A DNA stretch of 64,000 bases from Streptomyces longispororuber (lineage in GTDB: Bacteria; Actinomycetota; Actinomycetes; Streptomycetales; Streptomycetaceae). The position numbers and the translations under genes are program-made. The stretch covers positions 62,001 through 126,000 of the forward strand of contig NZ_BNBT01000007.1 of the NCBI RefSeq assembly GCF_014656095.1, in the 5' to 3' direction. Under the pieces are notes generated by a model. The model was not told the DNA's origin, did not search any database, and worked only from the letters and a program-made list of their open reading frames with translations. Below, piece after piece: positions 32,589 to 47,678 of this stretch (position 1 is the first letter of the stretch; each line of letters opens with the position of its first letter).

Positions 32589-33521
32589 CTAGTCGTCCGC
32601 GAGCAGTCCTGTCCGCAGGCGGGCGAGGGTGTGGGAGAGCAGGCGCGACACGTGCATCTGCGAGATGCCGAGCGCCCTGCCGATCTCGGCCTGGGTCATC
32701 TCCTGGCCGAAGCGCATCTCGATGATGCGCCGCTCCCGCTCCCCCAGCTCCGCGAGGAGCGGCGCCAGGGCGTGCAGGTGCTCGACGGTCTCCAGGGCCG
32801 GGTCGGGGGCGCCCATGACGTCGGCGATCGAGCGGCCGCGCCGGTGCGTCTCACCCTCGTCGCGCGGATCGTTCGGGGCGTCGAGGGAGCCGGCGGTGTA
32901 CCCGTTGGCGGCCACGATCGCCTCCAGGGCCTGCTCCTCGGTCACCTCCAGCTCGGCGGCGAGCTCCCTGACCGTCGGCTCGCGGCCGAGCGTGGTGGAC
33001 AGCTTCTCCTGGGCGGCGGCGAGGCGGGACCGCAGCTCCTGGAGCCGGCGCGGTACGTGCACCGCCCAGCTCGTGTCACGGAAGTGGCGCTTGATCTCCC
33101 CGAGGATCCAGGGGACGGCGAACGTGGTGAACTCGACGCCGCGGCTCAGGTCGAACCGGTCGATCGCCTTGATCAGCCCCACCGTCCCCACCTGGACGAT
33201 GTCCTCCATCTGTCCGCTGCCGCGGGCCCGGTACCGGCCCGCGACGTAGTGCACGAGGGTGAGGTTCATCTCGATCAGCGTGTTGCGCGCGTACTCGTAC
33301 TCGCGCGTCCCCTCCTCCAGGACGCGGAGCCGGTCGACGAAGAGCTTCGTCAGCTCCCGCGCGTCCTTCGGCGCGACGTCGACGGCCTCCTCGATCCACG
33401 GCAGCCCGGCGGAGGCGGCGCGGCCGCCGCGCCCCCCGGTCGCGGCGGCGGTCCGGTCGGCGTCGGCCCCGTGGCAGCGTGCGCGTGGTGTCGTCCCGCT
33501 CACGCCGATGTTGGCAGGCAC
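32589..33521 (-). CDS. SigB/SigF/SigG-family sigma factor
   Basis: 310 aa from GTG 33521 (GGGAG 8 bases upstream). Region 2: YARNTLIEMNLTLVHYVAGR, EDIVQVGTVGLIKAIDRFDL, FTTFAVPWILGEIKRHFRDT. Region 3: REPTVRELAAELEVTEEQAL. Region 4: ERERRIIEMRFGQEMTQAEI, GRALGISQMHVSRLLSHTLA. This is the stress/sporulation sigma class normally controlled by an anti-sigma kinase and STAS antagonist. The adjoining PP2C and STAS genes fit such partner switching, but no kinase is present here. A disordered N-terminal 40 residues precede the core. Confidence 0.93.
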   Translation of the reverse strand: MPANIGVSGTTPRARCHGADADRTAAATGGRGGRAASAGLPWIEEAVDVAPKDARELTKLFVDRLRVLEEGTREYEYARNTLIEMNLTLVHYVAGRYRARGSGQMEDIVQVGTVGLIKAIDRFDLSRGVEFTTFAVPWILGEIKRHFRDTSWAVHVPRRLQELRSRLAAAQEKLSTTLGREPTVRELAAELEVTEEQALEAIVAANGYTAGSLDAPNDPRDEGETHRRGRSIADVMGAPDPALETVEHLHALAPLLAELGERERRIIEMRFGQEMTQAEIGRALGISQMHVSRLLSHTLARLRTGLLADD

Positions 33522-33804
33522 AGTCTTGCTCCCTCACCCGATTCGTGCGGTCGGGCGAGTGATTCCGCAACGGCCGCGCCGTGTACCGGGACCTTCCTCA
33601 CCGGGGGCCGGGACCATGGCCACGACTTCGCAGGACCCAAGGGCCCGAGGACCCAAGAACCCACGGGTCCGCCCGCCGGGCCCGCCCCGGCCCCCGGCGC
33701 CCGTACGCCCCGTCCGTACGCCCCGCCCACACGCCCTGCCCCGCCCCGCACGCGGGCACGATCCCGCGTGCGGTGTGAGACTGCCCCTGAGGAGGTGAGC
33801 GCAG

Positions 33805-35004
33805 GTGGTGAGCCAGCCGATGGCGTCCGGCCCGGGAGAGCTGCTGCTCGAACAGCTCCTGACCGCGGCCCACGCGGCGACCCCGATGGAGCTTCCCTCC
33901 CTGGTGCAGCGGTTCGCCGACGCCACCAGCCTCGACCAGATCGACGTGTACCTGGTCGACCTCCAGCAGCGCTGCCTGGTGCCGCTGAGCGACGGGCCGC
34001 CGACGCTGGACGTGAACACCTCCGTCGCCGGATCGGCCTACCGGGCCCACGACCTGCGGGTCGAGGAGCTGCCGCAGGGCAGGATCACGGTCTGGCTGCC
34101 GCTGATCGACGGTGCGGAGCGGCTCGGCGTCATCGGGGCCACGGCGCCCCTGATCGACGGGGTGCTGCTGCGGCGCTGCCGCATGCTGGCCTCCATCCTC
34201 GCCATGGTGATCACCTCGAAGCGCGCCTCCAGCGACAGCTTCGCGCGCCGGACCCGCTCCCAGGTCATGCAGTTGCCCGCCGAGATGCTGCGGGCCTTCC
34301 TGCCGCCCCGCACGGTCGGCAACTCCCGGGCGATCTCGACCGCCGTCCTGGAGCCGGCCTACAACATCGGCGGCGACGTCTTCGACCACTCCCTGACCAG
34401 CTCCACGCTGCACGTGGCGATCCTCGACGCCATGGGGCACAACCTGGCGTCCGGCCTGACGACGTCCGTGGCCATGGCGGGCTGCCGCAACGCCCGGCGG
34501 GCGGGCGCGGAGCTGCCCGAGCTCGTCGACAACATCCAGCGGGCCCTCGCCGAGTGGCTGCCCGAGCAGTTCTGCACGGGCATCTTCGCCCAGCTCGACC
34601 TGGCCGGAGGCGTCCTGCGGTGGTGCAACTGCGGGCATCCTCCGCCCCTGCTCATCCGCGACCACCGGGTCCTCGCCGGTGCCCTGGAGCGCTCGGCGCA
34701 GCCGCCGCTGGGCACGCCCGGACTGCTGGCCGGCAACCCGTGGCAGGTGCACGAGGAACACCTCAAGCCGGGCGACCGGGTGCTGATGTACACCGACGGC
34801 GTGACCGAGGCGCGTACCGGCAACGGCGTCGAATTCGGCCTGGAGCGGTTCACGGACACCATCATCCGGGCGACGGCCGCGGGCGAGTCGGCACCGGAGG
34901 CGCTGCGGCAGCTCATCCACTCCCTCCTCGACCGGCAGGAGAAGCCGCTGCGCGACGACGCCACGCTGCTGCTCATGGAGTGGTGCCCGTCGAGCCCGCG
35001 CTGA
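33805..35004 (+). CDS. PP2C-type (SpoIIE) phosphatase with GAF-like N-terminus
   Basis: 399 aa from GTG 33805, with GGAGG 9 bases upstream. A GAF-like N half (LDQIDVYLVDLQQRCLVPLS, LPLIDGAERLGVIG) precedes the SpoIIE/RsbU phosphatase: AYNIGGDVFDHSLTSSTLHV, AILDAMGHNLASGL, FCTGIFAQLDL, WCNCGHPPPLLI, LMYTDGVTEARTGNGVEFG, LRDDATLLLMEW. Metal-binding Asp residues are present. It should dephosphorylate a STAS antagonist to free a sigma factor; it is divergent from the sigma gene. Confidence 0.92.
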   Translation: MVSQPMASGPGELLLEQLLTAAHAATPMELPSLVQRFADATSLDQIDVYLVDLQQRCLVPLSDGPPTLDVNTSVAGSAYRAHDLRVEELPQGRITVWLPLIDGAERLGVIGATAPLIDGVLLRRCRMLASILAMVITSKRASSDSFARRTRSQVMQLPAEMLRAFLPPRTVGNSRAISTAVLEPAYNIGGDVFDHSLTSSTLHVAILDAMGHNLASGLTTSVAMAGCRNARRAGAELPELVDNIQRALAEWLPEQFCTGIFAQLDLAGGVLRWCNCGHPPPLLIRDHRVLAGALERSAQPPLGTPGLLAGNPWQVHEEHLKPGDRVLMYTDGVTEARTGNGVEFGLERFTDTIIRATAAGESAPEALRQLIHSLLDRQEKPLRDDATLLLMEWCPSSPR

Positions 35005-35010
35005 CCGGGC

Positions 35011-35037
35011 GGGCCCGCGGCCGTCCGCCGCGGCCCC
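35011..35037. terminator. Terminator between convergent phosphatase and STAS genes
   Basis: GGGCCCGCGGC at 35011-35021 faces GCCGCGGCCCC at 35027-35037, one mismatch, 5-base loop. Confidence 0.7.
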
Positions 35038-35214
35038 GTCCGCACGTGAGCCCGCCCCCGCGGTGACGGTGTGGACGACCCGGTGCCGTCGGGGTCGGTG
35101 ACCGAGGTGACCTTTGCCGCGTCCGGCACCGCGGACCGGCTCTCTCTCAGCATGATCGTCGAGGGCTTCGCTGCCTTCGCGCCGCTGTTGGTGCCGCCTG
35201 GCGAGCGAGGGGGT

Positions 35215-35583
35215 TCAGGTGGTGGTGCGGTTGCCTTGGCGTGCGGCGAGCGCGGCGTCGGCGCTGGGATAGGCGGGCAGGAAGGTGTCCATCCCGGTGA
35301 CGTTGAGCAGGCGGCCCAGCCGGTCGGGGATGGCCGCCAGGGTGAGGGTGCCGTCGGCGTCCTTGGCGCAGCGCCAGATGCCGACGAGGGCGCCCAGGCC
35401 GGAGGAGTCGCAGAAGGTGACGCCCGCCAGGTCGGCGACCAGGTCGGGGTGGCCGTTCGCGATGAGGTCAAGGGCGCGGGCCCGCACGGCGGGGGCCGTG
35501 GTGATGTCGAATTCACCGGACAGTGCGATGACGGCCAGGGTGCCGCCGGTGTGGGGGACGTCGATGTGGAGTGTGTCGGTCAT
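35215..35583 (-). CDS. STAS-domain anti-sigma factor antagonist
   Basis: 122 aa from ATG 35583, overlapping the upstream phosphatase stop (ATGA). STAS fold: LAVIALSGEFDITTAPAVRA, LVADLAGVTFCDSSGLGALV where the DSSG serine is the phospho-site, LLNVTGMDTFLPAYPS. It is the expected substrate of the PP2C encoded immediately upstream and would bind an anti-sigma kinase when dephosphorylated. Confidence 0.93.
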   Translation of the reverse strand: MTDTLHIDVPHTGGTLAVIALSGEFDITTAPAVRARALDLIANGHPDLVADLAGVTFCDSSGLGALVGIWRCAKDADGTLTLAAIPDRLGRLLNVTGMDTFLPAYPSADAALAARQGNRTTT

Positions 35584-37028
35584 GGGCGTGGGTTCTCCTG
35601 CCCGACGGAGGCGTCGGCGGTCGGGGCGGCGGCGCTGTGAGCGGTGGTGGTGATGCCCGCGGGGGCGGCATCGGGGGTGGGGACGGACAGGGCCAGGAGT
35701 GCCACGTCGTCGCGTTCGGTGTCGGGCAGGGTGTCCAGGAGGGCGACGGTGTCGTCGATCAGGCAGCCGGCGCTGACCGGCCCCTGGCGCCGGGCCAGGA
35801 AGTCCGTCAGGCCGGTATCGGCGAGCATGTCGCCTTCGGCGGTGCGGGCCTCGGTCAGCCCGTCGGTGTAGAGCAGCAGTCCCTGGCCGGGTGCCAGGTG
35901 CAGGGTGCGTGAGGCGAAGGCGGCTTCGGCGAACGCGCCGACCAGCATGCCGCCCTTGACGCGGGCCGCCTCCACCCGCATGCCGCCGTCCTCGGTGGGG
36001 CTGAGGTGGTAGGCGGGCGGGTGGCCGCCGGTGGCCAGCGTGACCGTGAAACCGCCGTCCCGGGCGGGATCGAGCAGGCCGAAGACGGCGGTGCAGAAGC
36101 GGGTGCCGACCGCCGGGTCCAGCAGCAGGGCGGCGTTCAGGGCCTTGAGCGCGGCCGTGGGTTCGGCGTCGACGAGGGCTGCGGCCCGCAGCGTGTAGCG
36201 GGTCAGTGAGGTGACCGAGGCGGCTTCGGCGCCCTTGCCGCACACATCGCCCAGGAAGAACGCCCACCGGCCGTCGCCGACGGGGAAGACGTCGTAGAAG
36301 TCGCCCCCCACTTCCTGGGGGGAGGCGGTCTTGTAGTGACAGGCCAGCTCCAGTCCCGGTACCGCGGGCAGCGCGGGAGGCACCAGGGTGCGCTGCAGGG
36401 TGGAGGCGAACGCGGCGATGGCCGCCTTGTCCCGCTCCGCGCGCTGCCGGGCCTCTTCCTCCGCCTGCCGCTTGTCCTGCTCGGCGCGCACGACGTGCAA
36501 CGCCGACAGCCGCAGTTCGAGCTGGTCACGCACCACCGCCGCCAGGTCCGCCAGCGTGGCCGTATCCGCCTCGCTGATCTCGCGGGGGCGGGTGTCGAGG
36601 ACGTTGACCGTGCCCAGCCGGTACCCGTCGGCGGTGATGATCGGAGCGGCGGCGTAGAACCGCACCCCCATCGGGCCGGCGACCAGCGGATTGGAGCAGG
36701 CGACCGGATCGAGCAGGGTGTCGGGGATGACGGTGGTGTCGTCGGTCAGGACCGCCGAGGCGCACAACCCCGGGTCCCGGCCGATCTCGGTGACACCCTC
36801 CAGGCCGTGCGTGGCCTTGAACCAGATCCGGTCCTCGTCCACGATGGTCACCGTCGCCACCGGCACCTCGAACAGGCGAGCGGCCAGCGCCGCGACCCGG
36901 TCGTAGGCGCCGTCCGGAGGGGTGTCGAGAATGTCGTAACGGCGCACCGCCGCCATCCGCGCCGCCTCGACCGACACGGCCAGAGGTTCCTGCGGCGCTA
37001 TCGCAGGCGGGCTCGCTTGCTCCGGCAT
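35580..37028 (-). CDS. GAF-SpoIIE phosphatase
   Basis: 482 aa from ATG 37028 with GAGGG upstream. GAF domain (RYDILDTPPDGAYDRVAALA, VDEDRIWFKATHGLEGV, DPGLCASAVL, NPLVAGPMGVRFYAAAPIIT) belongs to the class that reads small ligands or redox state. A coiled coil rich in Glu/Arg (RAEQDKRQAEEEARQRAERD) links it to the phosphatase: EVGGDFYDVFPVGDGRWAFF, LGDVCGKGAEAASVTSLTRY, LATGGHPPAY, LLYTDGLTEARTAEGDMLAD, DDVALLALSV. Coupled to the STAS gene, its likely substrate. Confidence 0.93.
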   Translation of the reverse strand: MPEQASPPAIAPQEPLAVSVEAARMAAVRRYDILDTPPDGAYDRVAALAARLFEVPVATVTIVDEDRIWFKATHGLEGVTEIGRDPGLCASAVLTDDTTVIPDTLLDPVACSNPLVAGPMGVRFYAAAPIITADGYRLGTVNVLDTRPREISEADTATLADLAAVVRDQLELRLSALHVVRAEQDKRQAEEEARQRAERDKAAIAAFASTLQRTLVPPALPAVPGLELACHYKTASPQEVGGDFYDVFPVGDGRWAFFLGDVCGKGAEAASVTSLTRYTLRAAALVDAEPTAALKALNAALLLDPAVGTRFCTAVFGLLDPARDGGFTVTLATGGHPPAYHLSPTEDGGMRVEAARVKGGMLVGAFAEAAFASRTLHLAPGQGLLLYTDGLTEARTAEGDMLADTGLTDFLARRQGPVSAGCLIDDTVALLDTLPDTERDDVALLALSVPTPDAAPAGITTTAHSAAAPTADASVGQENPRP

Positions 37029-37192
37029 AACCCTCGTCTCGCTCGTCCCCCAGGAAAGCGCCGACCAGACAGCCGGCACCCCCACACAGTACCGACACGC
37101 CCAGCTTCCCCCGTACCGACGACGAACTACGCGGAAACAGTCGCAACTGAGCACAGCGATGCACAAACGGGCAAACCGCGACAATCTGCGCG

Positions 37193-37339
37193 CTACGAGA
37201 CGGCAAGTCCGGCCGCCCCGGAGCTGTCGAGGCTTTGCTCGGTCTCGGCAACCTTATCCTGCAGGCAGCGCAACGCCCTGGCGGTGATGAACGCCGCGAC
37301 CTTGGCCGAGGTCGCGGGGACTGGGATCCGGTCACTCAC
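37193..37339 (-). CDS. 48-aa ORF translationally coupled to the type III PKS
   Basis: GTG 37339 overlaps the PKS stop (TGGTGAGTG; GTGA overlap). The frame reads MSDRIPVPATSAKVAAFITA and then RALRCLQDKVAETEQSLDSS to TAG at 37193-37195, with G/C at nearly all third positions. Predicted helical, one Cys, no membrane span. Coupling and codon use argue for a real product; it might be a small partner of the PKS or a gene remnant. No family recognised. Confidence 0.55.
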   Translation of the reverse strand: MSDRIPVPATSAKVAAFITARALRCLQDKVAETEQSLDSSGAAGLAVS

Positions 37340-38463
37340 CAGCGGGTCAGTACCAGTTCGATGGCGAAGCCGGGACCCATGGCGGAGATCAATCCGGGTG
37401 CGCCGGTGGGCGGTGGGGTTCGCATCGCCTCGTGGAGGACGTGCAGCACGGCGGAGGAGGAGAGGTTGCCCTTGGCGGCCAGGGAGGTGCGCGTCGCGTC
37501 CAGTGCCGGCGGGGGCAGGCCCATGGACTCCTCGAAGGCGGTCATGACCTTGGGGCCGCCGGCGTGGACGATCCAGGTGGCGATCTCGTCGGGGGTGAGG
37601 CCATGGCGGCCGAGCAGTTCGTGGACGGCCTTGGGCAGGTGTTCAGCGGTGAGGTCGGGTACTTCGGGGGCGAGCAGGATGCGGAGGCCATGGGAGCCGA
37701 TGTCCCAGCCGAGGACGTCCTCGGTGCCCGGCACCAGGTAACTCAGGCTGTCGACGAGTTCGGGGCCGGGCAAGCCCTGGGCGCGCTTCGCCCCCATGCC
37801 GACCACGGCGGCCGCGCCGTCGCCGAAGAGGCTGCCGGCGACGATGTTGGCCATCGAGGTGTCCTGCATCTGGTAGGCCAGCGAGCACAGTTCGACCGAG
37901 AGCAGTACCGCCGCGTGGTCGGGGTGGCCGAGCAGGTACTCGCGCAGGCGGGCGAGGCCTGCCGCGCCGCCCGCGCATCCGTTGCCGAACAGGGGGATCC
38001 GGCGCACGTCGGGGCGCATGCCCATGCGGTGGGCGAGCCGGGCCTCGAGGGAGGGGACGGCCATGCCGGTGACCGTGGTGCTGATCACCGCGTCGACGCC
38101 GTCGGGGCGCAGGCCCGCCTGTTCCAGCGCCTCGGTGACCACCTTCTCGCCGATCTCCAGGGCGGTCTCCAGCCACACACGGTTGGCGTCGGAGAAGTCG
38201 GTGAGCTCCCGCAGTTCCTCGAGCGGCCGGGCGAAGTGGCGCGCGTCCACCCCGGCGTTGGACTGAATCTGCTGAAGCATGGCCGCGCCGGTCACCGACC
38301 GGCCCAGTGTCGTGCCCGCCAGGAAGTCCATGATCTGTTCCTGCTGGAACCGGTGCGGCGGCACGGCGGTCGCGATCGACGTCACCCTCGGCGCCGGCGC
38401 GCCCGGTGCACGGCACCCGCGACCTGCTCTTGAGTGCTCCGCCGTCGTCTGCTCTGTGGTCAA
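37336..38463 (-). CDS. Type III polyketide synthase
   Basis: 375 aa from TTG 38463 (AAGGGCGAG 5 bases upstream). Chalcone/stilbene-synthase fold with the full triad: LFGNGCAGGAAGLARLREYL (nucleophilic Cys), GSHGLRILLAPEVP (His) and AAKGNLSSSAVLHVLHEAMR (Asn), plus GPGFAIELVL near the C-terminus. It condenses malonyl-CoA onto an acyl starter to give pyrones, resorcinols or phloroglucinols. The neighbourhood (desaturase, ACP, ketosynthase) suggests a fatty, possibly ACP-borne, starter. It is 60 bp downstream of the ketosynthase gene. Confidence 0.94.
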   Translation of the reverse strand: MTTEQTTAEHSRAGRGCRAPGAPAPRVTSIATAVPPHRFQQEQIMDFLAGTTLGRSVTGAAMLQQIQSNAGVDARHFARPLEELRELTDFSDANRVWLETALEIGEKVVTEALEQAGLRPDGVDAVISTTVTGMAVPSLEARLAHRMGMRPDVRRIPLFGNGCAGGAAGLARLREYLLGHPDHAAVLLSVELCSLAYQMQDTSMANIVAGSLFGDGAAAVVGMGAKRAQGLPGPELVDSLSYLVPGTEDVLGWDIGSHGLRILLAPEVPDLTAEHLPKAVHELLGRHGLTPDEIATWIVHAGGPKVMTAFEESMGLPPPALDATRTSLAAKGNLSSSAVLHVLHEAMRTPPPTGAPGLISAMGPGFAIELVLTRW

Positions 38464-38523
38464 CTCGCCCTTCGCCCCTTCGGGGATCCCGGTGGTAGCG
38501 GTGGATGGTGGTCATGCGGTCGG

Positions 38524-39747
38524 TCACGCGTCGCTGAGCACCAGAACGACGTTCTGCCCGCCGAAACCGAAGGCGCAGCTCATGGCCGTTCGCATGGGGG
38601 CCAGGCGCGGTTTCCCGGCCACGATGTCGAGCTTGTGCTCCCCGTCCTGACCCTGGAAGTTCGCGACAGGTGGGACGGCCCCGTGGCGCAGCGCGAGGAC
38701 CGTGTATGCCGCCTGGATCGCCGCCGACGCTCCCAGGGAGTGGCCGATCACGCCCTTCGCCGCCGTGACCGGGGGCGGCGTGTCACCGAAGACGCGTGCC
38801 AGGGCGGCGGCCTCGACCGCGTCGCCCAGCGGCGTGGAGGTTCCGTGCGCGTTCACGTGCCCGATGTCCCGCGGGCGGCATCCCGCGTCCTCCAGTGCGG
38901 CCACGATGACGCGGGCGGCACCTTCGCCCTGTGGGTGCGGGGCCACGGGGTGGTGGGCGTCGGAGCCGGCGCCGTAACCGCGCAGCAGCGCCAGAACCGG
39001 TGCCTTCCTGGCGTGCGCGTCGGCAGCCCTTTCCAGGACGAGGACGGCGGCGCCCTCGCCCAGGACCATTCCGTCCCTGCCCGCGTCGAACGGCCTGCTG
39101 GCCAGTGCGGGTTCGTCACGGCGCCGTGACAGCGCGCGCATCTGGGTGAAGCAGGTGGCCGTCATCCGGGACCGGGCGGATTCGCTGCCGCCGGCCAGGA
39201 CGATGTCGCAGGTACCGGACCGCAGCAGATCACGTGCCACCCCGAGCGCGGTGGCACCTGAGGCGCAGGCGCTGGCGGTGGTGAAATTGGGACCTTGCGC
39301 GCCCAGGTCGATGGCGACCTCGCCTGCCGCCATGCTGGGCACGCTGCGCGGCAGTGCCAGCGGGGACACGCGCCGCGGCCGGTCCGCGCCGAGGTGGCCG
39401 AACTCGGTGACGTACGTGCTCAGGCAGTTGGAACCGACGCCGAGGACGACTCCGACCCGCGGGCCGAGACCGCCCTGCGTGGACAGGCCGGCGTCCTCGA
39501 CGGCCCGGCGCGCCGCGACGAGCGCGAACCGGGTGAACGGGTCCACGCGCCGCGCCAGCGGCGGGCCGAGTTCTCCCGCCGCGTCGAGGCCGGTGACCTG
39601 GCAGGAGAAGTCGACCGGCAGGCCTGTGAGTTCGGGATCCGGGGCGGCCAGCGAACGCCCCCGGCACAGGGCCGCCCAGTTCTCTTCCGGCGTGTGTCCG
39701 GCCGGGGTCACGAGCCCGAGCCCGGTGACAGCGACGTCAGCGGGCAT
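38524..39747 (-). CDS. Beta-ketoacyl-ACP synthase (FabF/KAS II-like)
   Basis: 407 aa from ATG 39747, 11 bp inside the ACP gene (GTG 39771 would add 8 residues). VAVTGLGLVTPAG, TASACASGATALGVARDLLR (Cys nucleophile), HVNAHGTSTPLGDAVEAAAL (first His), KGVIGHSLGASAAIQAAYTV (Lys and second His), SCAFGFGGQNVVLVL. All catalytic residues are intact. A single ketosynthase without a chain-length-factor partner makes a FabF-like elongation step more likely than an aromatic type II PKS. Confidence 0.94.
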   Translation of the reverse strand: MPADVAVTGLGLVTPAGHTPEENWAALCRGRSLAAPDPELTGLPVDFSCQVTGLDAAGELGPPLARRVDPFTRFALVAARRAVEDAGLSTQGGLGPRVGVVLGVGSNCLSTYVTEFGHLGADRPRRVSPLALPRSVPSMAAGEVAIDLGAQGPNFTTASACASGATALGVARDLLRSGTCDIVLAGGSESARSRMTATCFTQMRALSRRRDEPALASRPFDAGRDGMVLGEGAAVLVLERAADAHARKAPVLALLRGYGAGSDAHHPVAPHPQGEGAARVIVAALEDAGCRPRDIGHVNAHGTSTPLGDAVEAAALARVFGDTPPPVTAAKGVIGHSLGASAAIQAAYTVLALRHGAVPPVANFQGQDGEHKLDIVAGKPRLAPMRTAMSCAFGFGGQNVVLVLSDA

Positions 39748-39994
39748 CGGCGATGACACGGGCGGCGTCACCGAGGGTGGCGGACGGGGACAGGTCCAGG
39801 GCCTCCTCGGACGGCACGATCCCGAACCGTTCCTCCGCTGCGACGATCATCTCCATGAGCGCCAGCGAGTCCATGCCGAGACTCACGAACGTGGTGGACG
39901 GCGTGAGGGCTTCGGGTTCCGCCTCCACCTTGCAGTACTCCGTGAGCAGGGCGACGAGCGGTTCGGGAAGGGCGTCCTGTCTTTCCTGCGTCAT
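39737..39994 (-). CDS. Acyl carrier protein
   Basis: 85 aa. FVSLGMDSLALMEMIVAAEE contains the Ser in DSL that receives 4'-phosphopantetheine. ATG 39994 overlaps the desaturase stop (ATGA). It is presumably the carrier on which the desaturase and ketosynthase act. It is discrete and not a PCP by sequence (acidic helix II, FGIVPSEEAL). Confidence 0.93.
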   Translation of the reverse strand: MTQERQDALPEPLVALLTEYCKVEAEPEALTPSTTFVSLGMDSLALMEMIVAAEERFGIVPSEEALDLSPSATLGDAARVIADAR

Positions 39995-40959
39995 GCCTGT
40001 GTCTCCTTCGTGGATTGCGCGGTGACCGCGGGATTCTTGTGGGGGGTCATGCGCTCGAACAACTCACGTGAGCGGGCCGCGCGTTCGGTGAGCTGCTCCA
40101 GGTACGTGCCCAGACGTTCGCGTGCCTGCTCGCCGGCCGGCCCGAGGCCGGGCAGGGACATCACCTTCAGCGCACGCACCAGCGGTGTCACCACGTACTC
40201 GCGGTGGACGTCCAGGTTGTAGATCCCGGACGCGGCGATGCGCGCGGCGCGTGGGCGGAATCCGGGGATCGCCGCGCCCGGCATCGTGAAGTCCCGCAGC
40301 ACGTCCGCGAGGGCGGTCATCGCCTCGTTCGGGAACACGGCGAGGGCGTCGGCGAACAGCCTCCGGTAGAAGAGCATGTGCAGGTTCTCGTCCGCCGCGA
40401 TCCGTGCCATCAGCAGTTCGCCGGCCTTGTCCTGGCAGGCGGCCCCGGTGTTGCGGTGCGCCTGGCGGGTGGCCAGTTCCTGGACGGTGACGTAGGCCAG
40501 CGAGTGCAACAGCGTCGGCAGGCCGGTGTGGAATCCGGTCCCGACGTGCCGCATGCGCAGCGCTTCCAGCGCGACGGGGTCCACGGCGCGCCGGGCGTGG
40601 ACGTAGGCGCGCAGGACCGAGGCGTGCCGGTCCTCCTCCGCGGTCCATCGATGCACCCATGCGCCCCAGGCGCCGTCCCGGCCGAACCGGCCGGCGATCT
40701 CGAAGTGGTAGCTGGGCAGGTTGTCCTCGGTGAGAAGGTTGACGACCAGTGCGTCCCGGACGGCCTGCGGCAGTGGCGACTGGTCCGGTGACCAGGGCGT
40801 GCCGTCCAGGGGGCCGTCGAAGTCCAGGGACGCGGACCATGGCACGTACTGGTGGGGAAGCCAGTCACGGGCAGCGTCGAGATGCTGTGCCATGAGCCGT
40901 TCCACCGAGGGTTCCAGTTCGTGCAGGACGTGTTCCGACGCGGCTGGGGGCTCAGCCAT
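39991..40959 (-). CDS. Acyl-ACP desaturase (ferritin-like diiron)
   Basis: 322 aa from ATG 40959 (GAGGGGA 9 bases upstream). Diiron ligands appear in the expected pattern: LLTEDNLPSYHFE (first E..E/H), WTAEEDRHASVLRAY (EExxH), VTVQELATRQAHR, IAADENLHMLFYRRLF (second ExxH). Acyl-ACP desaturases insert a double bond into an ACP-bound chain using ferredoxin and O2. First gene of the leftward unit desaturase-ACP-KAS-PKS, divergent from an exporter. Confidence 0.92.
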   Translation of the reverse strand: MAEPPAASEHVLHELEPSVERLMAQHLDAARDWLPHQYVPWSASLDFDGPLDGTPWSPDQSPLPQAVRDALVVNLLTEDNLPSYHFEIAGRFGRDGAWGAWVHRWTAEEDRHASVLRAYVHARRAVDPVALEALRMRHVGTGFHTGLPTLLHSLAYVTVQELATRQAHRNTGAACQDKAGELLMARIAADENLHMLFYRRLFADALAVFPNEAMTALADVLRDFTMPGAAIPGFRPRAARIAASGIYNLDVHREYVVTPLVRALKVMSLPGLGPAGEQARERLGTYLEQLTERAARSRELFERMTPHKNPAVTAQSTKETQA

Positions 40960-41211
40960 TCGCACGTCCCCTCATCATGTACGCAGGACACATCTGTACG
41001 ACTTCCTGTTAACGCATTTCACGTCCGGGGGGAACGGTCTTTCACCCGATCGGCACCCTCGGCCAACAGGCCGCATGCGGCGTGCGGCTTTCGCGTGACG
41101 GTGACCTGTCGAGCACGCTCGGGCCGGTAGTTCTTGTCGGGTGATCGCCTCGGCCTCTTCCCGTTCAGTCCTGCCGTCGACGCGCACGCCTTCACGAGGG
41201 ACGTGTGTCCG
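40960..41211. promoter_or_regulatory. Divergent promoter, desaturase operon / DHA2 exporter
   Basis: 252 bp. GTACGCAGGACACATCTGTA and ACTTCCTGTTAACGC near the desaturase side are AT-richer than the surroundings and suit a promoter. No regulator gene is adjacent, and I see no clean long palindrome. Confidence 0.4.
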
Positions 41212-42816
41212 ATGACCGACATCATCGATCCCGTCCCCGATCCCGATCCCGGTTCCGTCCCCGATCCCGGTTCCGGTATCGGTTCCGACTCCGTCGCCGG
41301 TCCCTCCGGGTCCGGCACCAAGGACGACGGCGGGGTGAAGACCGGTGGCGTGCTGTTCGCGATGTGCCTGGCACTGGTCCTGGTCACCGCGTCCATGTCC
41401 AGCCTGTATCTCGCGCTGCCCGACCTGGCCGTCGACCTGGGCGCGTCCACCGCCTCGCTGACCTGGATCGTCGACGGTTACGTGCTGGCCCTCGCCGGGC
41501 TGGTCCTTCCGTTCGGCGCGCTCGGCGACCGGCTCGGCCGGCGTGCGGTGCTCCTCGCGGGCGCGGTCGTGCTCGGGGCCGCGGCGCTCGCCGCCTCCGA
41601 GGCGTCGGGGACGACCGCGCTGATCGCCTGGCGTGCCGTGATGGGTCTCGGCGCGGCCATGATCATGCCCGGCACGCTGTCCACGATCACCGCCGTGCTT
41701 CCGGACGCACAGCGGCAGAAGGGCATCGCCGTCTGGTCCGCGTGTGCGGCGGTCGGCGTGATCCTGGGGATGCTCGCCACCGGCGTGCTGCTGCACTGGT
41801 TCAATTGGCGGTCGATCTTCGTCTCGGGCGCCGTGGCCGCGCTGGGCGTCGCACTCGCCGCGGTGTTCCTGGCCCCGGAGACCAAGGGCGGGGAGCGGCA
41901 CCGGTTCGATGTCGCTGGTGCGCTGTGCACGGCGCTCGCGCCCGCCGGTCTGGTGTACGCGCTGATCGAGGGCAACGACGCGGGCTGGGGCCGGCCCACG
42001 GTCCTCGCGGCACTGGCCGTCACCGTGGTGGTCGGCATCGCGTACGTCGTTCTGGGGCTGCGCACCGAACACCCACTCCTGGACCCGCGGCTCTTTCGCA
42101 ACCGGGGATTCAGGGCCGGGGCCGTGACCATCGCCGTGCAGTTCATGGCCGTGTTCGGGTTCTTCTTCGTCGGGTTGCAGTACCTGCAACTGGTGCTCGG
42201 CTACAGCCCGTTGAAGTCCGCACTCGCTCTGGTGCCCGTGGCGGTGGTCGTCGCCGTCGTCTCGGAGGTGACACCTCGTCTCACCATGCGACTCGGCATG
42301 CGCACCGTCATGATGGGCGGGCTGCTGCTGCTCGGCACCGGGCTGTTCACGCTGTCCCTGATCGACGTCGATTCCGGCTACCCGCCCTTCCTGGGCAGCC
42401 TTGTGCTCGCCGGGCTCGGGATCGGTCTCACCGGAGTCGTCGGCACCTCGGCGATCACTGGTTCGCTCCCCCGCGAACAGCAGGGCGTCGCCTCCGCGAT
42501 GAACGACGTCACCCGCGAGGCGGGCGCGGCGATCGGGATCGCTTTGATGGGCTCGCTGTTCGGCAGTCACTACCGGTCCTCGTTGCCCGACCTCTCGGGC
42601 CTGCCCGAGCCCGCCGCGGAGGTCGTGCGCCACTCCGCGGTGGGCGGCCTCGAGGTCGCCGACCGCCTCGGCCCGCAGGGCGTGGTGCTCGCCACGGACG
42701 TCAAGGAGGCGCTCGTGACCGGCATGTCGGTGGCGCTCGGCTCGATCGCGGCGATCACCGCCGTCGCCGCCTGTCTCCTCGTACGCACTCCGCAGCAGCC
42801 GGCATCGCCGGAATGA
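41212..42816 (+). CDS. DHA2-family MFS exporter (14 TM)
   Basis: 534 aa from ATG 41212. N-terminal PDPDPGSVPDPGSG repeat, then fourteen hydrophobic spans of the EmrB/QacA type: YLALPDLAVDLGASTASLTW, GALGDRLGRRAVLLAGA, GTLSTITAVLPDAQRQKGIA, SACAAVGVILGMLATGVLL (motif C region), SAMNDVTREAGAAIGIALMG. Proton-driven drug or metabolite export, probably of the product of the divergent operon. GAGGGA lies about 11 bases before the start. Confidence 0.92.
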   Translation: MTDIIDPVPDPDPGSVPDPGSGIGSDSVAGPSGSGTKDDGGVKTGGVLFAMCLALVLVTASMSSLYLALPDLAVDLGASTASLTWIVDGYVLALAGLVLPFGALGDRLGRRAVLLAGAVVLGAAALAASEASGTTALIAWRAVMGLGAAMIMPGTLSTITAVLPDAQRQKGIAVWSACAAVGVILGMLATGVLLHWFNWRSIFVSGAVAALGVALAAVFLAPETKGGERHRFDVAGALCTALAPAGLVYALIEGNDAGWGRPTVLAALAVTVVVGIAYVVLGLRTEHPLLDPRLFRNRGFRAGAVTIAVQFMAVFGFFFVGLQYLQLVLGYSPLKSALALVPVAVVVAVVSEVTPRLTMRLGMRTVMMGGLLLLGTGLFTLSLIDVDSGYPPFLGSLVLAGLGIGLTGVVGTSAITGSLPREQQGVASAMNDVTREAGAAIGIALMGSLFGSHYRSSLPDLSGLPEPAAEVVRHSAVGGLEVADRLGPQGVVLATDVKEALVTGMSVALGSIAAITAVAACLLVRTPQQPASPE

Positions 42817-42840
42817 GCACCTCGGAGAGGACCCCTTTCC

Positions 42841-43203
42841 GTGAACGAGCCGGGCTTCGCCCACCTGCCCGCCGGGCTGCTGATCCTCGTCGCGGCTCTC
42901 GTCGCCGAGCGGCTGCGCGCACTCGTGGTGGCCCGCCGTAACGCGCGCTGGGCCGCCGCCCGCGGAGGCGTCGAGTACGGACAGGGGCACACCCGGTGAT
43001 GGTCGTGCTCCATGCGGGCCGTGTGGTCGGCATGCCGGCCGAAGTCGCCCTGGCAGCACGGACGTTCGTCCCGGCGCTCGGCTGGACCGCGTGGGCCGCG
43101 GTCGTCCTGGTGAACGTCATACGGGCCTGGTGCATGCACGCGCTCGGTCCGCAGTGGAACACGCGCGTGATCGTCGTACCGGGCCTGCCGCTGGTGAGCG
43201 ACC
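42841..43203 (+). pseudogene. Isoprenylcysteine-carboxylmethyltransferase-like gene, frameshifted and truncated
   Basis: The first frame (GTG 42841, 52 codons, [38 protein letters not shown]) stops at TGA 42997-42999. The next frame continues the same family: MVVLHAGRVVG, PALGWTAWAAVVLVNVIRAW, CMHALGPQWNTRVIVVPGLP. Adding one base after CAC at 42988-42990 restores ...GGVEYGQGHYPVMVVLHAG.., so a one-base deletion is the simplest cause. After VPGLPLVSDLPE homology ends near 43203, before the expected YRWLRHPNY segment, so the C-terminal catalytic part is missing. Relatives methylate small molecules, often beside type III PKS genes. Confidence 0.82.
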
Positions 43204-43673
43204 TGCCTGAACGCACCGGTGTCAGGCGAGCAGCCCGGCCATTCCTCTGGAACGGCAGCTCCTGGACGCGGCTGCCCGCACCCTTCGGCCCGGCGGCCGG
43301 GCACGTGTCCGCGCTCCTGGTCCGCGACGGCGTCTCCTGTGCCGGCGGCTCGGTGGATCAGCGCGCGGCCGCGGCCGCCTGGGACGGCCGCGCGTGGTCA
43401 CCGCGGCACCCGTCCGGCCTGGAGGCCTCCGAGGTCCAGCACTTCGCGGCGTACGGCACGCAGGTGTGGGCGGCGGGCACCCGCGTGCCGCTCCAGCGGT
43501 GGACCGGCTCGTCCTGGTCCACGGGCGAGGGACCGCCGCCCGGGGCGCCGACGGCGGACGCGGTGACGCACGGCCCGGACGGCGCCCTGTGGCTGGCGGG
43601 CCACGTCGAGGGCACGGCGGACGGCGTCACCACGTACTTCCTGGCCGAGCTACCGACGGCCGCCCGCCCGTGA
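42999..43673 (+). CDS. Chimeric ORF: methyltransferase remnant fused to a repeat-propeller-like tail
   Basis: 224 codons from ATG 42999. Residues 1-70 are the methyltransferase remnant described above. From about residue 75 the character changes: LWNGSSWTRLPAPFGPAAGH, AWDGRAWSPRHPSGLEASEV, QRWTGSSWSTGEGPPPG, WLAGHVEGTADGV. The WxGxxW units spaced about 45 residues apart look like the C-terminal blades of a secreted propeller-type repeat protein, with its start and signal peptide missing. The ORF seems to be an accidental fusion at a recombination join near 43200. Confidence 0.6.
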   Translation: MVVLHAGRVVGMPAEVALAARTFVPALGWTAWAAVVLVNVIRAWCMHALGPQWNTRVIVVPGLPLVSDLPERTGVRRAARPFLWNGSSWTRLPAPFGPAAGHVSALLVRDGVSCAGGSVDQRAAAAAWDGRAWSPRHPSGLEASEVQHFAAYGTQVWAAGTRVPLQRWTGSSWSTGEGPPPGAPTADAVTHGPDGALWLAGHVEGTADGVTTYFLAELPTAARP

Positions 43674-43691
43674 CCGGGGCCGGGGCTGGGG

Positions 43692-43719
43692 CCCTGACCG
43701 GGGCCGGGGCCGGTCAGGG
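43692..43719. terminator. Inverted repeat between the chimeric ORF and the SDR gene
   Basis: CCCTGACCGG (43692-43701) and CCGGTCAGGG (43710-43719), perfect 10-bp stem, overlapping the SDR stop codon. Suits convergent termination. Confidence 0.7.
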
Positions 43720-44508
43720 AAGGATCGCGTCGACGTACCCGCCGTCGACGCGCAGCGCGCCGCCGGTCGTGGCGGAGGCCAGGTCGGAGCTGAGGTACAC
43801 CACCATGTTGGCGATCTCCTCCGGTTCGATGAGGCGCTGGAGCAGCGACTGGGGGCGGTGCTCCTTCATGAAGACGCGCTGTGCCTCGTCCCAGGGCAGG
43901 TCGCGGTCGACGAGCTGGTAGACGAAGTCCTCCACGCCCTTGGTGTGGGTGGGCCCGGCGATGACGGAGTTCACGGTGACGCCGGTGCCCGCGGCCTGTT
44001 TGGCGAAGCCGCGGCCGACGGCGAGCAGGGCGGTCTTCGACACGCCGTAGTGGATCATCTCGGCGGGGGTCACGACGGCCGAGTCGCTGGCGATGTACTG
44101 GACGCGGCCCCAGCCCCGCTCGGCCATCCGCGGCAGGTACGTGCGGGTGAGGCGGACGGCGGCCAGGACGTTGACGTCGAAGTAGCGGCGCCACTCCGCG
44201 TCCGTGATCTCCAGCGGGTCCTGGGCGCCGAAGATGCCGAGGTTGTTGATGAGGACGTCGACCTCCGGCAGGAGCTCGTGCACCCGCTCCCCGCCGTCGT
44301 CGGCGGCGACGTCGGCGGCCACGGGGACGAAGTCGCCGCCCGGCACCTCCTCCCCGAGCCGCTCGACGGCCTCGTCCACCCGCTTCGGGTCCCGTCCGTT
44401 GATCCCGACGCGTGCCCCGGCCCGGGCGAGCCCGGTCGCGATGGCGGCCCCGATGCCCTGGGTGGACCCGGTCACGAGAGCCGTCCGTCCGGTGAGGTCG
44501 ATCTGCAT
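43714..44508 (-). CDS. Short-chain dehydrogenase/reductase
   Basis: 264 aa from ATG 44508. TALVTGSTQGIGAAIATGLA (cofactor loop), INGRDPKRV (suggests NADP preference), VDVLINNLGIFG, YIASDSAVV and IHYGVSKTALL (Ser-Tyr-Lys triad), GGALRVDGGYVDA. Classical SDR; substrate unknown. Monocistronic, with a 340-bp upstream gap. Confidence 0.9.
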   Translation of the reverse strand: MQIDLTGRTALVTGSTQGIGAAIATGLARAGARVGINGRDPKRVDEAVERLGEEVPGGDFVPVAADVAADDGGERVHELLPEVDVLINNLGIFGAQDPLEITDAEWRRYFDVNVLAAVRLTRTYLPRMAERGWGRVQYIASDSAVVTPAEMIHYGVSKTALLAVGRGFAKQAAGTGVTVNSVIAGPTHTKGVEDFVYQLVDRDLPWDEAQRVFMKEHRPQSLLQRLIEPEEIANMVVYLSSDLASATTGGALRVDGGYVDAILP

Positions 44509-46178: not shown

Positions 46179-46958
46179 TCAGGGCCGCGGCACCGGCGCG
46201 CGCGGCCCCACCCGGGTCGTGCGCGCCCTCCGGAAGAGGGGCATCGCGAGGGCCACGGGAGGACGCGCCGACGAGGGCTCCCCCACGGGCTCGGCGGGCG
46301 CGGGGAACCGGCGCGGCACGGCGTCGCCGGGAGCGGGAGCGGGGGCGGGGGCCCGCAGGGTGCGGGTCAGGCGGTCGCCCGCGCGCAGCACCTCGTGGCG
46401 GCGCCGGACGCGACGCCAGGCCAGGCACCACCGCTCCCAATCGCCGCCCGTGACGTCGCACACCCGCAGGAACGCGTCGAGCTGCTGGAGGTCGAGCACG
46501 GACTTGCCCGCGAGCATGCGGTGCAGCGTGCTGTGCGGGAGTTCCCCGTGGCGTCCGGCCCGGCGCTCCATCTCGTCCAGGGGCATCGCGCCCGCCTGGT
46601 GGTAGAGCTGCTGCAAGGCGTGGATCAGCTCGTCCCTGTTGTACACGCTGTCGGGCCGGGGCACGTCCACCTCGGGGTTCCGGCGCCGGTACTCGGCGTA
46701 GCGCGCGGCCCGCCACAGGCCGCGCGCGTGTCCCACGGGGGCCCCGCAGGCCCGGGCGTACGCCTCCACCACCGGCAGGCGCGGGACGCGGGTGCCCGTG
46801 GTGGCGCGGGAGAAGGTGGTGTCGGAGAAGGCGTACGCGGACCTCCTGGCCAGCTCCCGGTGCGTGAGCCCTGCCGCGTGGCGCCACTCGCGCAGCCAGC
46901 GGGCCAGCTTCTCCAGGGCCGGGTCGGCGGCCGCCACCGGCCGTTCCGGGCGTCCCAC
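46179..46958 (-). CDS. XRE-family helix-turn-helix protein
   Basis: 259 aa from GTG 46958 with GGAGGAGG 5 bases upstream. An HTH domain at residues 15-75 (LARWLREWRHAAGLTHRELA, RRSAYAFSDTTFSRATTGTR) is followed by a second HTH-like segment (RRAGRHGELPHSTLHRMLAG) and a proline/arginine-rich tail. This architecture is common in Streptomyces regulators. It starts 13 bp after the FQP-repeat membrane gene, so the two are one unit. Confidence 0.85.
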   Translation of the reverse strand: MGRPERPVAAADPALEKLARWLREWRHAAGLTHRELARRSAYAFSDTTFSRATTGTRVPRLPVVEAYARACGAPVGHARGLWRAARYAEYRRRNPEVDVPRPDSVYNRDELIHALQQLYHQAGAMPLDEMERRAGRHGELPHSTLHRMLAGKSVLDLQQLDAFLRVCDVTGGDWERWCLAWRRVRRRHEVLRAGDRLTRTLRAPAPAPAPGDAVPRRFPAPAEPVGEPSSARPPVALAMPLFRRARTTRVGPRAPVPRP

Positions 46959-46971
46959 GGCACCTCCTCCG

Positions 46972-47391
46972 TCACCGCGCGTCCGGCGCGAGCGGGGCGT
47001 GCCGCGCCAGGTGGGCGCCGACCAGGCCCGCGGCCGCCAGCACCTCGGCGACGACGACGGCGGGCAGCCCGGCGGCGGCCAGGGCAGCCCCGAGGACGAG
47101 GACCACGACGACGATGACGGTCCGCCCGGTGCCGGGGCGGACCGGGAACGTGTCGGGGGCGCAGGCAGGACGTCGGCGTGACGGGCACGGTGACTTGGGC
47201 GACCGGAAGGACCGGGAAGAACTGAAAGACCGGAAAGACCGGAAAGACCGGAGCGGCTCGACCGGCTCGACCGACTTGAACGACTCGACCGGCTCGACCG
47301 GCTCGACCGGCTGGAACGGCTGGAACGGCTGGAACGGCTGGAACGGCTGGAACGGCTGGAACGGCTGGAACGGCTGGAACGGCTGGAACAT
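46972..47391 (-). CDS. FQP-repeat membrane protein
   Basis: 139 aa from ATG 47391, AGAGG 6 bases upstream. It opens with nine FQP triplets, then VEPVEPVES, RSFRSFRSF-type triplets, a basic Cys-containing segment and finally a hydrophobic C-terminal region (TVIVVVVLVLGAALAAAG, VVVAEVLAAAGLVGAHL) that makes one or two membrane helices. The repeat part would be a disordered aromatic/proline chain on one face of the membrane. I know no family. It is the leading gene of the unit with the XRE regulator, so it may be its target or partner. Confidence 0.65.
   Translation of the reverse strand: MFQPFQPFQPFQPFQPFQPFQPFQPFQPVEPVEPVESFKSVEPVEPLRSFRSFRSFSSSRSFRSPKSPCPSRRRPACAPDTFPVRPGTGRTVIVVVVLVLGAALAAAGLPAVVVAEVLAAAGLVGAHLARHAPLAPDAR
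47205..47390 (-). repeat. 9-bp minisatellite encoding FQP/VEP/SFR triplets
   Basis: Nine nearly perfect GGCTGGAAC units, then GGCTCGACC units, then GACCGGAAA-type units, all of period 9 across about 185 bp and all in the frame of the membrane protein. Confidence 0.95.
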
Positions 47392-47519
47392 GGACTACCT
47401 CTGGTTCTCGGTGTGCGGCGTTCCTCGCCCCCGTGCCAGGACGCCGTGCGGGGGCAACCGGGCGACGGCGTACGCCCGTTGGGCAGCATGGTGGCAGTCC
47501 GCCGCGCGCCCTCGCGGGG

Positions 47520-47652
47520 GTTGATGCGGTGGCGCCCCGCCCACCGCCGCCCCCGGGGCCCCGCGGCTCCGCTCCCCCGCGCGCGGCACCTGCGCGGACG
47601 CGTCGGGTGCGCGGGTGTGGGGCGCCCGGGGAAGGGAGTTGATGCGGTGGCG
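47520..47652. promoter_or_regulatory. Direct repeat upstream of the FQP/XRE unit
   Basis: GTTGATGCGGTGGCG occurs at 47520-47534 and identically at 47638-47652, 118 bp apart, in the promoter region of the FQP gene and downstream of the ThrRS gene. Candidate binding site for the XRE regulator. Confidence 0.45.
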
Positions 47653-47678
47653 GCCAACGCCCCTGTGGCGACCCGGTG

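What the first reader, a model, noticed from the sequence alone, without database searches (positions are those of the whole stretch)
37193..42816. Type III PKS operon with its own acyl-ACP desaturase, ACP and ketosynthase
Seen: desaturase, ACP, KAS, type III PKS and a coupled 48-codon ORF run in one direction with overlapping stops and starts, divergent from a DHA2 exporter. All catalytic residues are intact. Known: type III PKSs usually take acyl-CoA starters; desaturases of this family act on acyl-ACP. Inference: a modified fatty acyl-ACP is made locally, perhaps elongated once by the KAS, and passed to the type III PKS to give an unsaturated alkyl-resorcinol or alkyl-pyrone. I do not recognise this set as a described pathway.
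Basis: partly seen in the sequence, partly recalled or inferred. Interest (0 to 1): 0.72.

Follow-up and report, generated by a model that had tools for sequence, protein, structure and literature searches.

The report
Type III PKS operon with acyl-ACP supply
A small group of soil bacteria carries a lipid-making gene set in which a ring-forming enzyme travels with its own fatty-acid desaturase, carrier protein and chain-extending enzyme, so it probably makes unsaturated phenolic lipids; it looks like a new version of a known pathway, and in this strain its methylating gene is broken.

Summary
The observation mostly holds: desaturase, ACP, FabF-like ketosynthase (KAS) and type III PKS lie in one direction with catalytic residues intact. 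Two details fail: KAS and PKS do not overlap, and the 48-codon ORF is a by-product of the PKS ending TGG-TGA, without counterpart in the relatives searched. Three named Streptomyces have the window's exact layout and a fourth the same genes in one direction; others have an MMPL exporter instead. The PKS is of the SrsA/PKS11 family. Its common Streptomyces form is PKS-ICMT without acyl-supply genes (17 of 17 loci examined); PKSs of the new set form their own supported clade of 15 loci, all with a desaturase or its remains and 13 with ACP plus KAS. In one subclade of three loci the original desaturase is broken, fragmentary or absent, and a different one sits beside the PKS. Best reading: a variant alkylresorcinol pathway with dedicated unsaturated acyl-ACP supply. 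Product, starter thioester and role of KAS are inferred. Ten paper searches showed no described cluster with this set. New variant of a known kind; moderate interest.

The parts
39991..40965 (-). acyl-ACP desaturase (FA_desaturase_2)
   Evidence: Pfam 200.9 bits; best solved relative M. tuberculosis DesA2 1za0, 147.5 bits; diiron-type motifs invariant in 7 homologues; apart from the 5 putative housekeeping desaturases in the tree
39737..39994 (-). dedicated acyl carrier protein, Ser43 in GMDSL
   Evidence: PP-binding 44.7 bits; alignment of 5
38524..39747 (-).
   Evidence: Pfam; NCBIfam PRK07314 396 bits, cut-off 387, but below the fabF equivalog cut-off (412.4 of 493.75); active site aligned; start codons
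37336..38463 (-). type III polyketide synthase, SrsA/PKS11 family, separate clade
   Evidence: Pfam; PKS11 E 3.2e-103; triad and Trp253; tree
41134..42816 (+). DHA2-like MFS exporter, divergent
   Evidence: MFS_1 158.6 bits; same place in L096-L098, same direction as the core in L099
42841..43214 (+). remains of an ICMT-type methyltransferase: reading frame broken near 42980-42999, C-terminal third lost and replaced by unrelated sequence
   Evidence: frames; PF04140 24.2 bits, cut-off 24; 72% and 68% identity to residues 2-51 and 48-125 of the 178-aa L098 protein; alignment
37193..37339 (-). 48-codon ORF, judged not a gene
   Evidence: no family match; not found in the relatives searched

Best explanation
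A variant of the srs-type phenolic lipid pathway of Streptomyces with its own starter supply. The desaturase puts a double bond into a fatty acyl-ACP. The dedicated ACP and FabF-like KAS extend and/or carry that chain. The type III PKS takes the acyl (or 3-ketoacyl) group from ACP, adds malonyl units and closes the ring by aldol condensation to an alkenylresorcinol (or its carboxylic acid). Where intact, the ICMT-type enzyme O-methylates it, and a DHA2-like or MMPL transporter exports it. In the window strain this methyltransferase is broken, so the unmethylated lipid is expected. Shown: gene content, intact residues, conserved linkage, separate clade. Inferred: every chemical step.
For: Linkage: DES-ACP-KAS-PKS + MFS + ICMT in S. 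griseocarneus, S. orinoci, S. sp. KL109B and S. griseosporeus; DES-ACP-KAS-MMPL-PKS-ICMT in S. morookaense, Streptantibioticus rubrisoli and unnamed G227 and G051. PKSs of these loci form one clade (15 rows, 96/96) apart from the PKS-ICMT set with PKS11 (18 rows, 98/99). Desaturase or remains in 15 of 15 clade loci, ACP and linked KAS in 13 of 15; none of the three in 17 of 17 PKS-ICMT loci at E 1e-3. In one subclade (G159, G696, G969) the first desaturase is broken, fragmentary or not found, and another (43-44% identity) sits between PKS and ICMT. Trp253, at the position of ArsB Trp281 needed for resorcinols, in 15 of 15 (role, passages). SCO7671, Gcs and ArsB/C reported to use acyl-ACP (passages).
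Against: No product or assay. The PKS could still use acyl-CoA. DES with KAS also occurs without a type III PKS in the stretches fetched (L036, L041, L042, L044, L045; L040 is a 4.8-kb contig and cannot tell). SCO7671 made pyrones in vitro although srs-type, and PKS11, which has the same Trp, is deposited as a pyrone synthase. The clade's PKSs are not more basic than the others, so charge gives no sign of ACP docking. Genes decay in several loci: DES in G159 and L101, KAS in G836 (which has another KAS, 60% identity, just upstream), MMPL in L117, L101 and L121, ICMT in the window and not found in L101, L116, L117, so the set may be dispensable or idle in some strains.
Confidence: 0.66

Rival explanations
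1. The product is an alkenyl-pyrone rather than a resorcinol, methylated by the ICMT-type enzyme as recalled for the Bacillus BpsA/BpsB pair.
For: Best structural relative PKS11 is deposited as an alpha-pyrone synthase; SCO7671 formed pyrones in vitro (passages).
Against: Trp253 is the resorcinol-type residue (passages); PKS11 has it too, so it is only a hint.
Confidence: 0.22
2. DES-ACP-KAS is an independent unsaturated-lipid module that merely sits beside the PKS, which draws acyl-CoA from the general pool.
For: KAS-DES without PKS: with a cyclopropane synthase and MMPL in L041/L042; with ACP, a second desaturase, WS/DGAT and MMPL in L036. The L036 KAS and DES fall among those of the PKS-linked loci.
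Against: Linkage kept across the 15-locus PKS clade, tight gene order, and a second desaturase next to the PKS in one subclade.
Confidence: 0.12
3. Within the best explanation: the KAS acts as an ordinary FabF and only lengthens the chain, with host reductases, before the PKS loads a fully reduced acyl-ACP.
For: FabF-like; no reductase in the operon, but host FAS could supply it (inference); in Pelargonium a 14:1 made by an acyl-ACP desaturase is thought to be elongated by the FAS system before the polyketide step (passages).
Against: A KAS plus its own ACP beside a PKS that could accept 3-ketoacyl chains also fits direct hand-over.
Confidence: 0.4
4. The cluster is decaying and silent in this strain.
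For: ICMT broken, with no near copy elsewhere in the genome.
Against: The four core genes are open with coding-type GC3; another ICMT-family gene on contig 80 (25.3 bits, cut-off 24) might stand in.
Confidence: 0.12

Closest known systems
srsABC of S. griseus / sco7669-7671 / pkq polyketide quinone operons
   Same: Related PKS with a methyltransferase next to it; Trp conserved; SCO7671 reported to accept acyl-ACP (PMC4573997, PMC9927152, PMC6274091, passages)
   Different: Here desaturase, ACP, KAS and an exporter are added, the FAD monooxygenase is not in the window's operon, and the PKS forms a separate clade. That SrsB is ICMT-like is recalled; no SrsA or SCO7671 sequence was in the tree
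Azotobacter ars system
   Same: Alkylresorcinol-type PKS fed by ACP-bound fatty acid (PMC6274091, passages)
   Different: There a fatty acid synthase with an ACP domain (ArsA, type I by the cited title) supplies the chain; no desaturase known to me
Cylindrocyclophane (cyl) pathway
   Same: Free ACP, oxidative change of the acyl-ACP, elongation, then type III PKS CylI to a resorcinol (PMC8086630, passages)
   Different: Halogenase not desaturase, type I PKSs not a FabF-like KAS; CylI is more distant (195 bits against 349 for PKS11)
Plant omega-5 anacardic acid pathway of Pelargonium
   Same: Acyl-ACP desaturase, elongation, probable type III PKS (PMC8002970, passages)
   Different: Plant enzymes, different ring, no operon
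adp (adipostatin) and losA (loseolamycin) clusters
   Same: Actinobacterial alkylresorcinol PKS
   Different: adp is described as PKS, sulfotransferase and PAPS genes; no desaturase, ACP or KAS is listed in the part of the losA gene table that I saw (PMC12135136, PMC7587189, passages)

Membership tests
SrsA/PKS11-type type III PKS | Cys-His-Asn triad, chalcone-synthase domains | tested here: met
SrsA/PKS11-type type III PKS | Trp at the ArsB Trp281 position | tested here: met
   role passages
SrsA/PKS11-type type III PKS | falls inside the clade of PKS-ICMT loci and PKS11 | tested here: not met
   separate clade of 15 rows; the tool warns that the PKS11 row is long and its place unsure, and no SrsA sequence was in the tree
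srs/pkq operon | adjacent methyltransferase | tested here: inconclusive
   ICMT open over at least 167 aligned residues without stops in 11 of 15 clade loci, broken in the window, not found in 3
srs/pkq operon | adjacent FAD monooxygenase | tested here: not met
   none between or beside the window's core genes; present in PKS-ICMT loci L081 and L085 (one L083 ORF tried had no match), and a FAD_binding_3 gene also lies upstream of DES in L099
THN synthase (RppA) | closest to RppA, no resorcinol-type Trp | tested here: not met
   identity of 1u0m as a THN synthase recalled
acyl-ACP desaturase | FA_desaturase_2 with ExxH / DExxH motifs | tested here: met
acyl-ACP desaturase | desaturates acyl-ACP at a defined carbon | not testable with these tools
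   needs enzyme assay
FabF-type KAS | Cys-His-His condensing enzyme | tested here: met
type III PKS that uses acyl-ACP | transfer from ACP to the PKS | not testable with these tools
   precedent only
cyl-type cluster | type I PKS, halogenase and AMP-binding enzyme | tested here: not met
   none among the window's operon genes

The most novel reading that the evidence does not exclude
A type II/type III hybrid line: the KAS makes an unsaturated 3-ketoacyl-ACP on the dedicated ACP and the type III PKS takes it directly, so the first ring carbon pair is laid down by a FabF-like enzyme. This would give a bacterial counterpart of the plant desaturase-KAS-PKS route to alkenyl phenolic lipids.
Probability: 0.3. 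Interest if true: 0.62.

Novelty: new variant of a known kind. Interest (0 to 1): 0.46.

Why it matters
It ties starter choice of a type III PKS to a co-encoded acyl-ACP supply. In the literature seen here, acyl-ACP use rested on in vitro work, on the Azotobacter FAS and on the cyanobacterial hybrid clusters. It predicts unsaturated, possibly O-methylated resorcinols from named Streptomyces (S. griseocarneus, S. orinoci, S. griseosporeus, S. morookaense), so the question of what donates the starter in vivo becomes testable by single gene deletions.

Tried and rejected
Rejected: THN synthase. The 48-codon ORF as a coupled gene. A basic-surface sign of ACP docking: pI 5.1-6.7 in the clade, 5.5-9.4 in the PKS-ICMT set, so no support. 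A near copy of ICMT or its missing part elsewhere in the genome: two other matches, E 0.12 and 0.22; an ICMT-family match on contig 80 (25.3 bits, just over the cut-off) was not followed up. Promoter scan of 36900-43800: 0 promoter-like and 3 terminator-like sites, against 0.3 and 1.4 in shuffles. Papers: 10 searches; I saw listings with titles and abstract starts, and none describes this gene set; one search found no paper. The library lacks most subscription papers; the SrsB and Gcs papers could not be read. Structure prediction was not used.

Mends after checking: my note says 18 of 20 fetched loci have ICMT; one search shows 19 of 20 (L091 lacks it). The second desaturase is in one subclade of three loci, not in three separate lineages, which weakens that argument; confidence lowered from 0.68 to 0.66. 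One search was run to recount ICMT, DES, ACP, KAS and the 48-codon ORF.

The 20 loci were chosen by me from the matches, mostly the best. L094 begins 150 bases before its PKS and L078 is a 6-kb contig, so neighbours there can be missed.
Full report
What is there. On the minus strand the window encodes an acyl-ACP desaturase (39991-40965), an ACP (39737-39994), a FabF-like ketosynthase (38524 to 39747 or 39771) and a type III PKS (37336-38463); a DHA2-like MFS gene (41134-42816) diverges from them. DES/ACP and ACP/KAS overlap; KAS and PKS are 60 nt apart. The expected catalytic residues are present. The 48-codon ORF is not supported: no family match and no counterpart in 35 relatives' loci at E 1e-2; its overlapping GTG is what any gene ending TGG-TGA shows.

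Directly after the MFS gene lie the remains of an ICMT-type methyltransferase. Residues 2-51 and 48-125 of the intact 178-aa protein of S. sp. KL109B match two adjacent window pieces in different frames (72% and 68% identity); the last third is replaced by unrelated sequence. No near copy was found in the 9.08 Mb genome, although one other ICMT-family match on contig 80 passes the curated cut-off (25.3 bits, cut-off 24).

The organism. The window genome (354 contigs) shares its genus group with G218 and G788, whose contigs have the lengths of S. morookaense and S. griseosporeus records carrying the same locus, so it is Streptomyces (inference).

Relatives. A scan of named genomes with an alignment of four PKSs gave 9 loci. 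L096 (S. griseocarneus), L097 (S. orinoci) and L098 (S. sp. KL109B) have the window's layout with an open ICMT; L099 (S. griseosporeus) has DES-ACP-KAS-PKS-MFS-ICMT in one direction; L100 (S. morookaense) and L102 (Streptantibioticus rubrisoli) have DES-ACP-KAS-MMPL-PKS-ICMT; L101 (S. sp. MspMP-M5) has a DES split over frames, a partial MMPL match and no ICMT on its 11-kb contig; L103 and L104 (sphingomonads) have PKS-ICMT without the other genes sought. The MMPL and ICMT families were named by Pfam on L037 and L038. In a sample of 295 Streptomyces genomes, 119 have a PKS match at E 1e-70 or better. In at least 5 of the 295 (G000, G051, G218, G227, G159) the PKS is linked to DES, ACP and KAS; only the loci were examined for this. 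The specialised desaturase (62% identity or more) was found in 11 of 295 and, at E 1e-106 or better, in 3 of 394 genomes of the class sample, all in this genus (1 of 137 genera). In the family sample 11 of 394 had a PKS match at 1e-112 or better, in 3 of 17 genera.

Phylogeny. In a tree of 41 PKS rows, the 15 rows from the new set form one clade (96/96), apart from an 18-row set (98/99) with PKS11 and 17 PKS-ICMT loci. The tool warns that the PKS11 row is long and its place unsure. Of the 15, all have a desaturase or remains of one, and 13 have ACP and a linked KAS: G836 (L116) has ACP, a broken KAS and another KAS (60% identity) upstream of DES, and G969 (L121) has neither in the stretch fetched. 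Eleven have an open ICMT, the window a broken one, and 3 (L101, L116, L117) none in the stretch. Of the 17 loci in the other set, all have ICMT and none has DES, ACP or KAS nearby at E 1e-3 (L094 has almost no upstream sequence). A third group of four (L077, L078, L091, L122) lies outside both: L077 and L122 have PKS-ACP-KAS-ICMT without a desaturase, L078 has PKS-ICMT, L091 the PKS alone. This suggests that ACP and KAS joined first (inference). DES and KAS trees group the linked loci too, with different fine branching; G082 (L036), with DES-ACP-KAS and no PKS, falls among them, so the PKS was lost or the module moved. Related loci are not independent, so these counts are not a significance test.

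A second desaturase. In G159 the first desaturase is in two frames, in G696 only fragments match, and in G969 none is found. All three, which form one subclade (100/100), have another desaturase (43-44% identity to the window's; FA_desaturase_2 in the one tested, L118) between PKS and ICMT. Replacement next to the PKS, probably a single event, suggests that desaturation belongs to the pathway.

Product. Trp253 aligns with PKS11 Trp230 and is present in 15 of 15 new-set, 17 of 17 PKS-ICMT and 3 of 4 third-group loci; the other two type III PKSs of the window's genome that pass the family cut-off have Gly and Tyr there. The literature ties this Trp to resorcinol formation (PMC5916927, PMC6274091 and PMC9927152, passages), but PKS11 is deposited as a pyrone synthase and SCO7671 has given pyrones, so the ring type is open. 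SCO7671, Gcs, ArsB and ArsC are reported to take acyl-ACP. SrsB, an O-methyltransferase acting on alkylresorcylic acid, was seen only as a reference title; that it is ICMT-like is recalled.

Mechanism and novelty. Most likely: desaturation on ACP, carrying or extension by ACP/KAS, transfer to the PKS, ring closure, O-methylation where ICMT is intact, export. The FAD monooxygenase of the quinone-forming srs/pkq operons (seen in L081 and L085) is not in the window's operon, so a resorcinol rather than a quinone end product is expected; L099 does have a FAD-binding gene upstream of DES. Ten paper searches (listed under Tried and rejected) showed no cluster with this set; the library is incomplete. 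Verdict: new variant of a known kind.

Noticed in passing
L041 5244-11468 and L042 5356-11550: KAS, acyl-ACP desaturase and cyclopropane fatty acid synthase in one run with an MMPL match (37% identity), no type III PKS match: perhaps another exported modified-lipid module.
   Followed up: partly
L036 8352-18615: DES-ACP-KAS plus a second desaturase, WS/DGAT, pyridoxal-dependent decarboxylase and an MMPL match, no PKS, although DES and KAS are near the window's.
   Followed up: partly
L077 7893-11205 and L122 9533-12693: PKS-ACP-KAS-ICMT without desaturase, a possible earlier stage of the set.
   Followed up: partly
window 32589-37184: Sigma-70-family factor, two SpoIIE-type phosphatases (one with GAF domain) and a STAS domain beside the operon, perhaps a stress-sigma control group.
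   Followed up: no
window 47250-47389: 15.6 copies of a 9-bp repeat, within the predicted ORF 46179-47657.
   Followed up: no
L125 and L126 (G000 contigs 9 and 171): Two other type III PKSs in the same genome with Gly and Tyr at the resorcinol Trp position.
   Followed up: no
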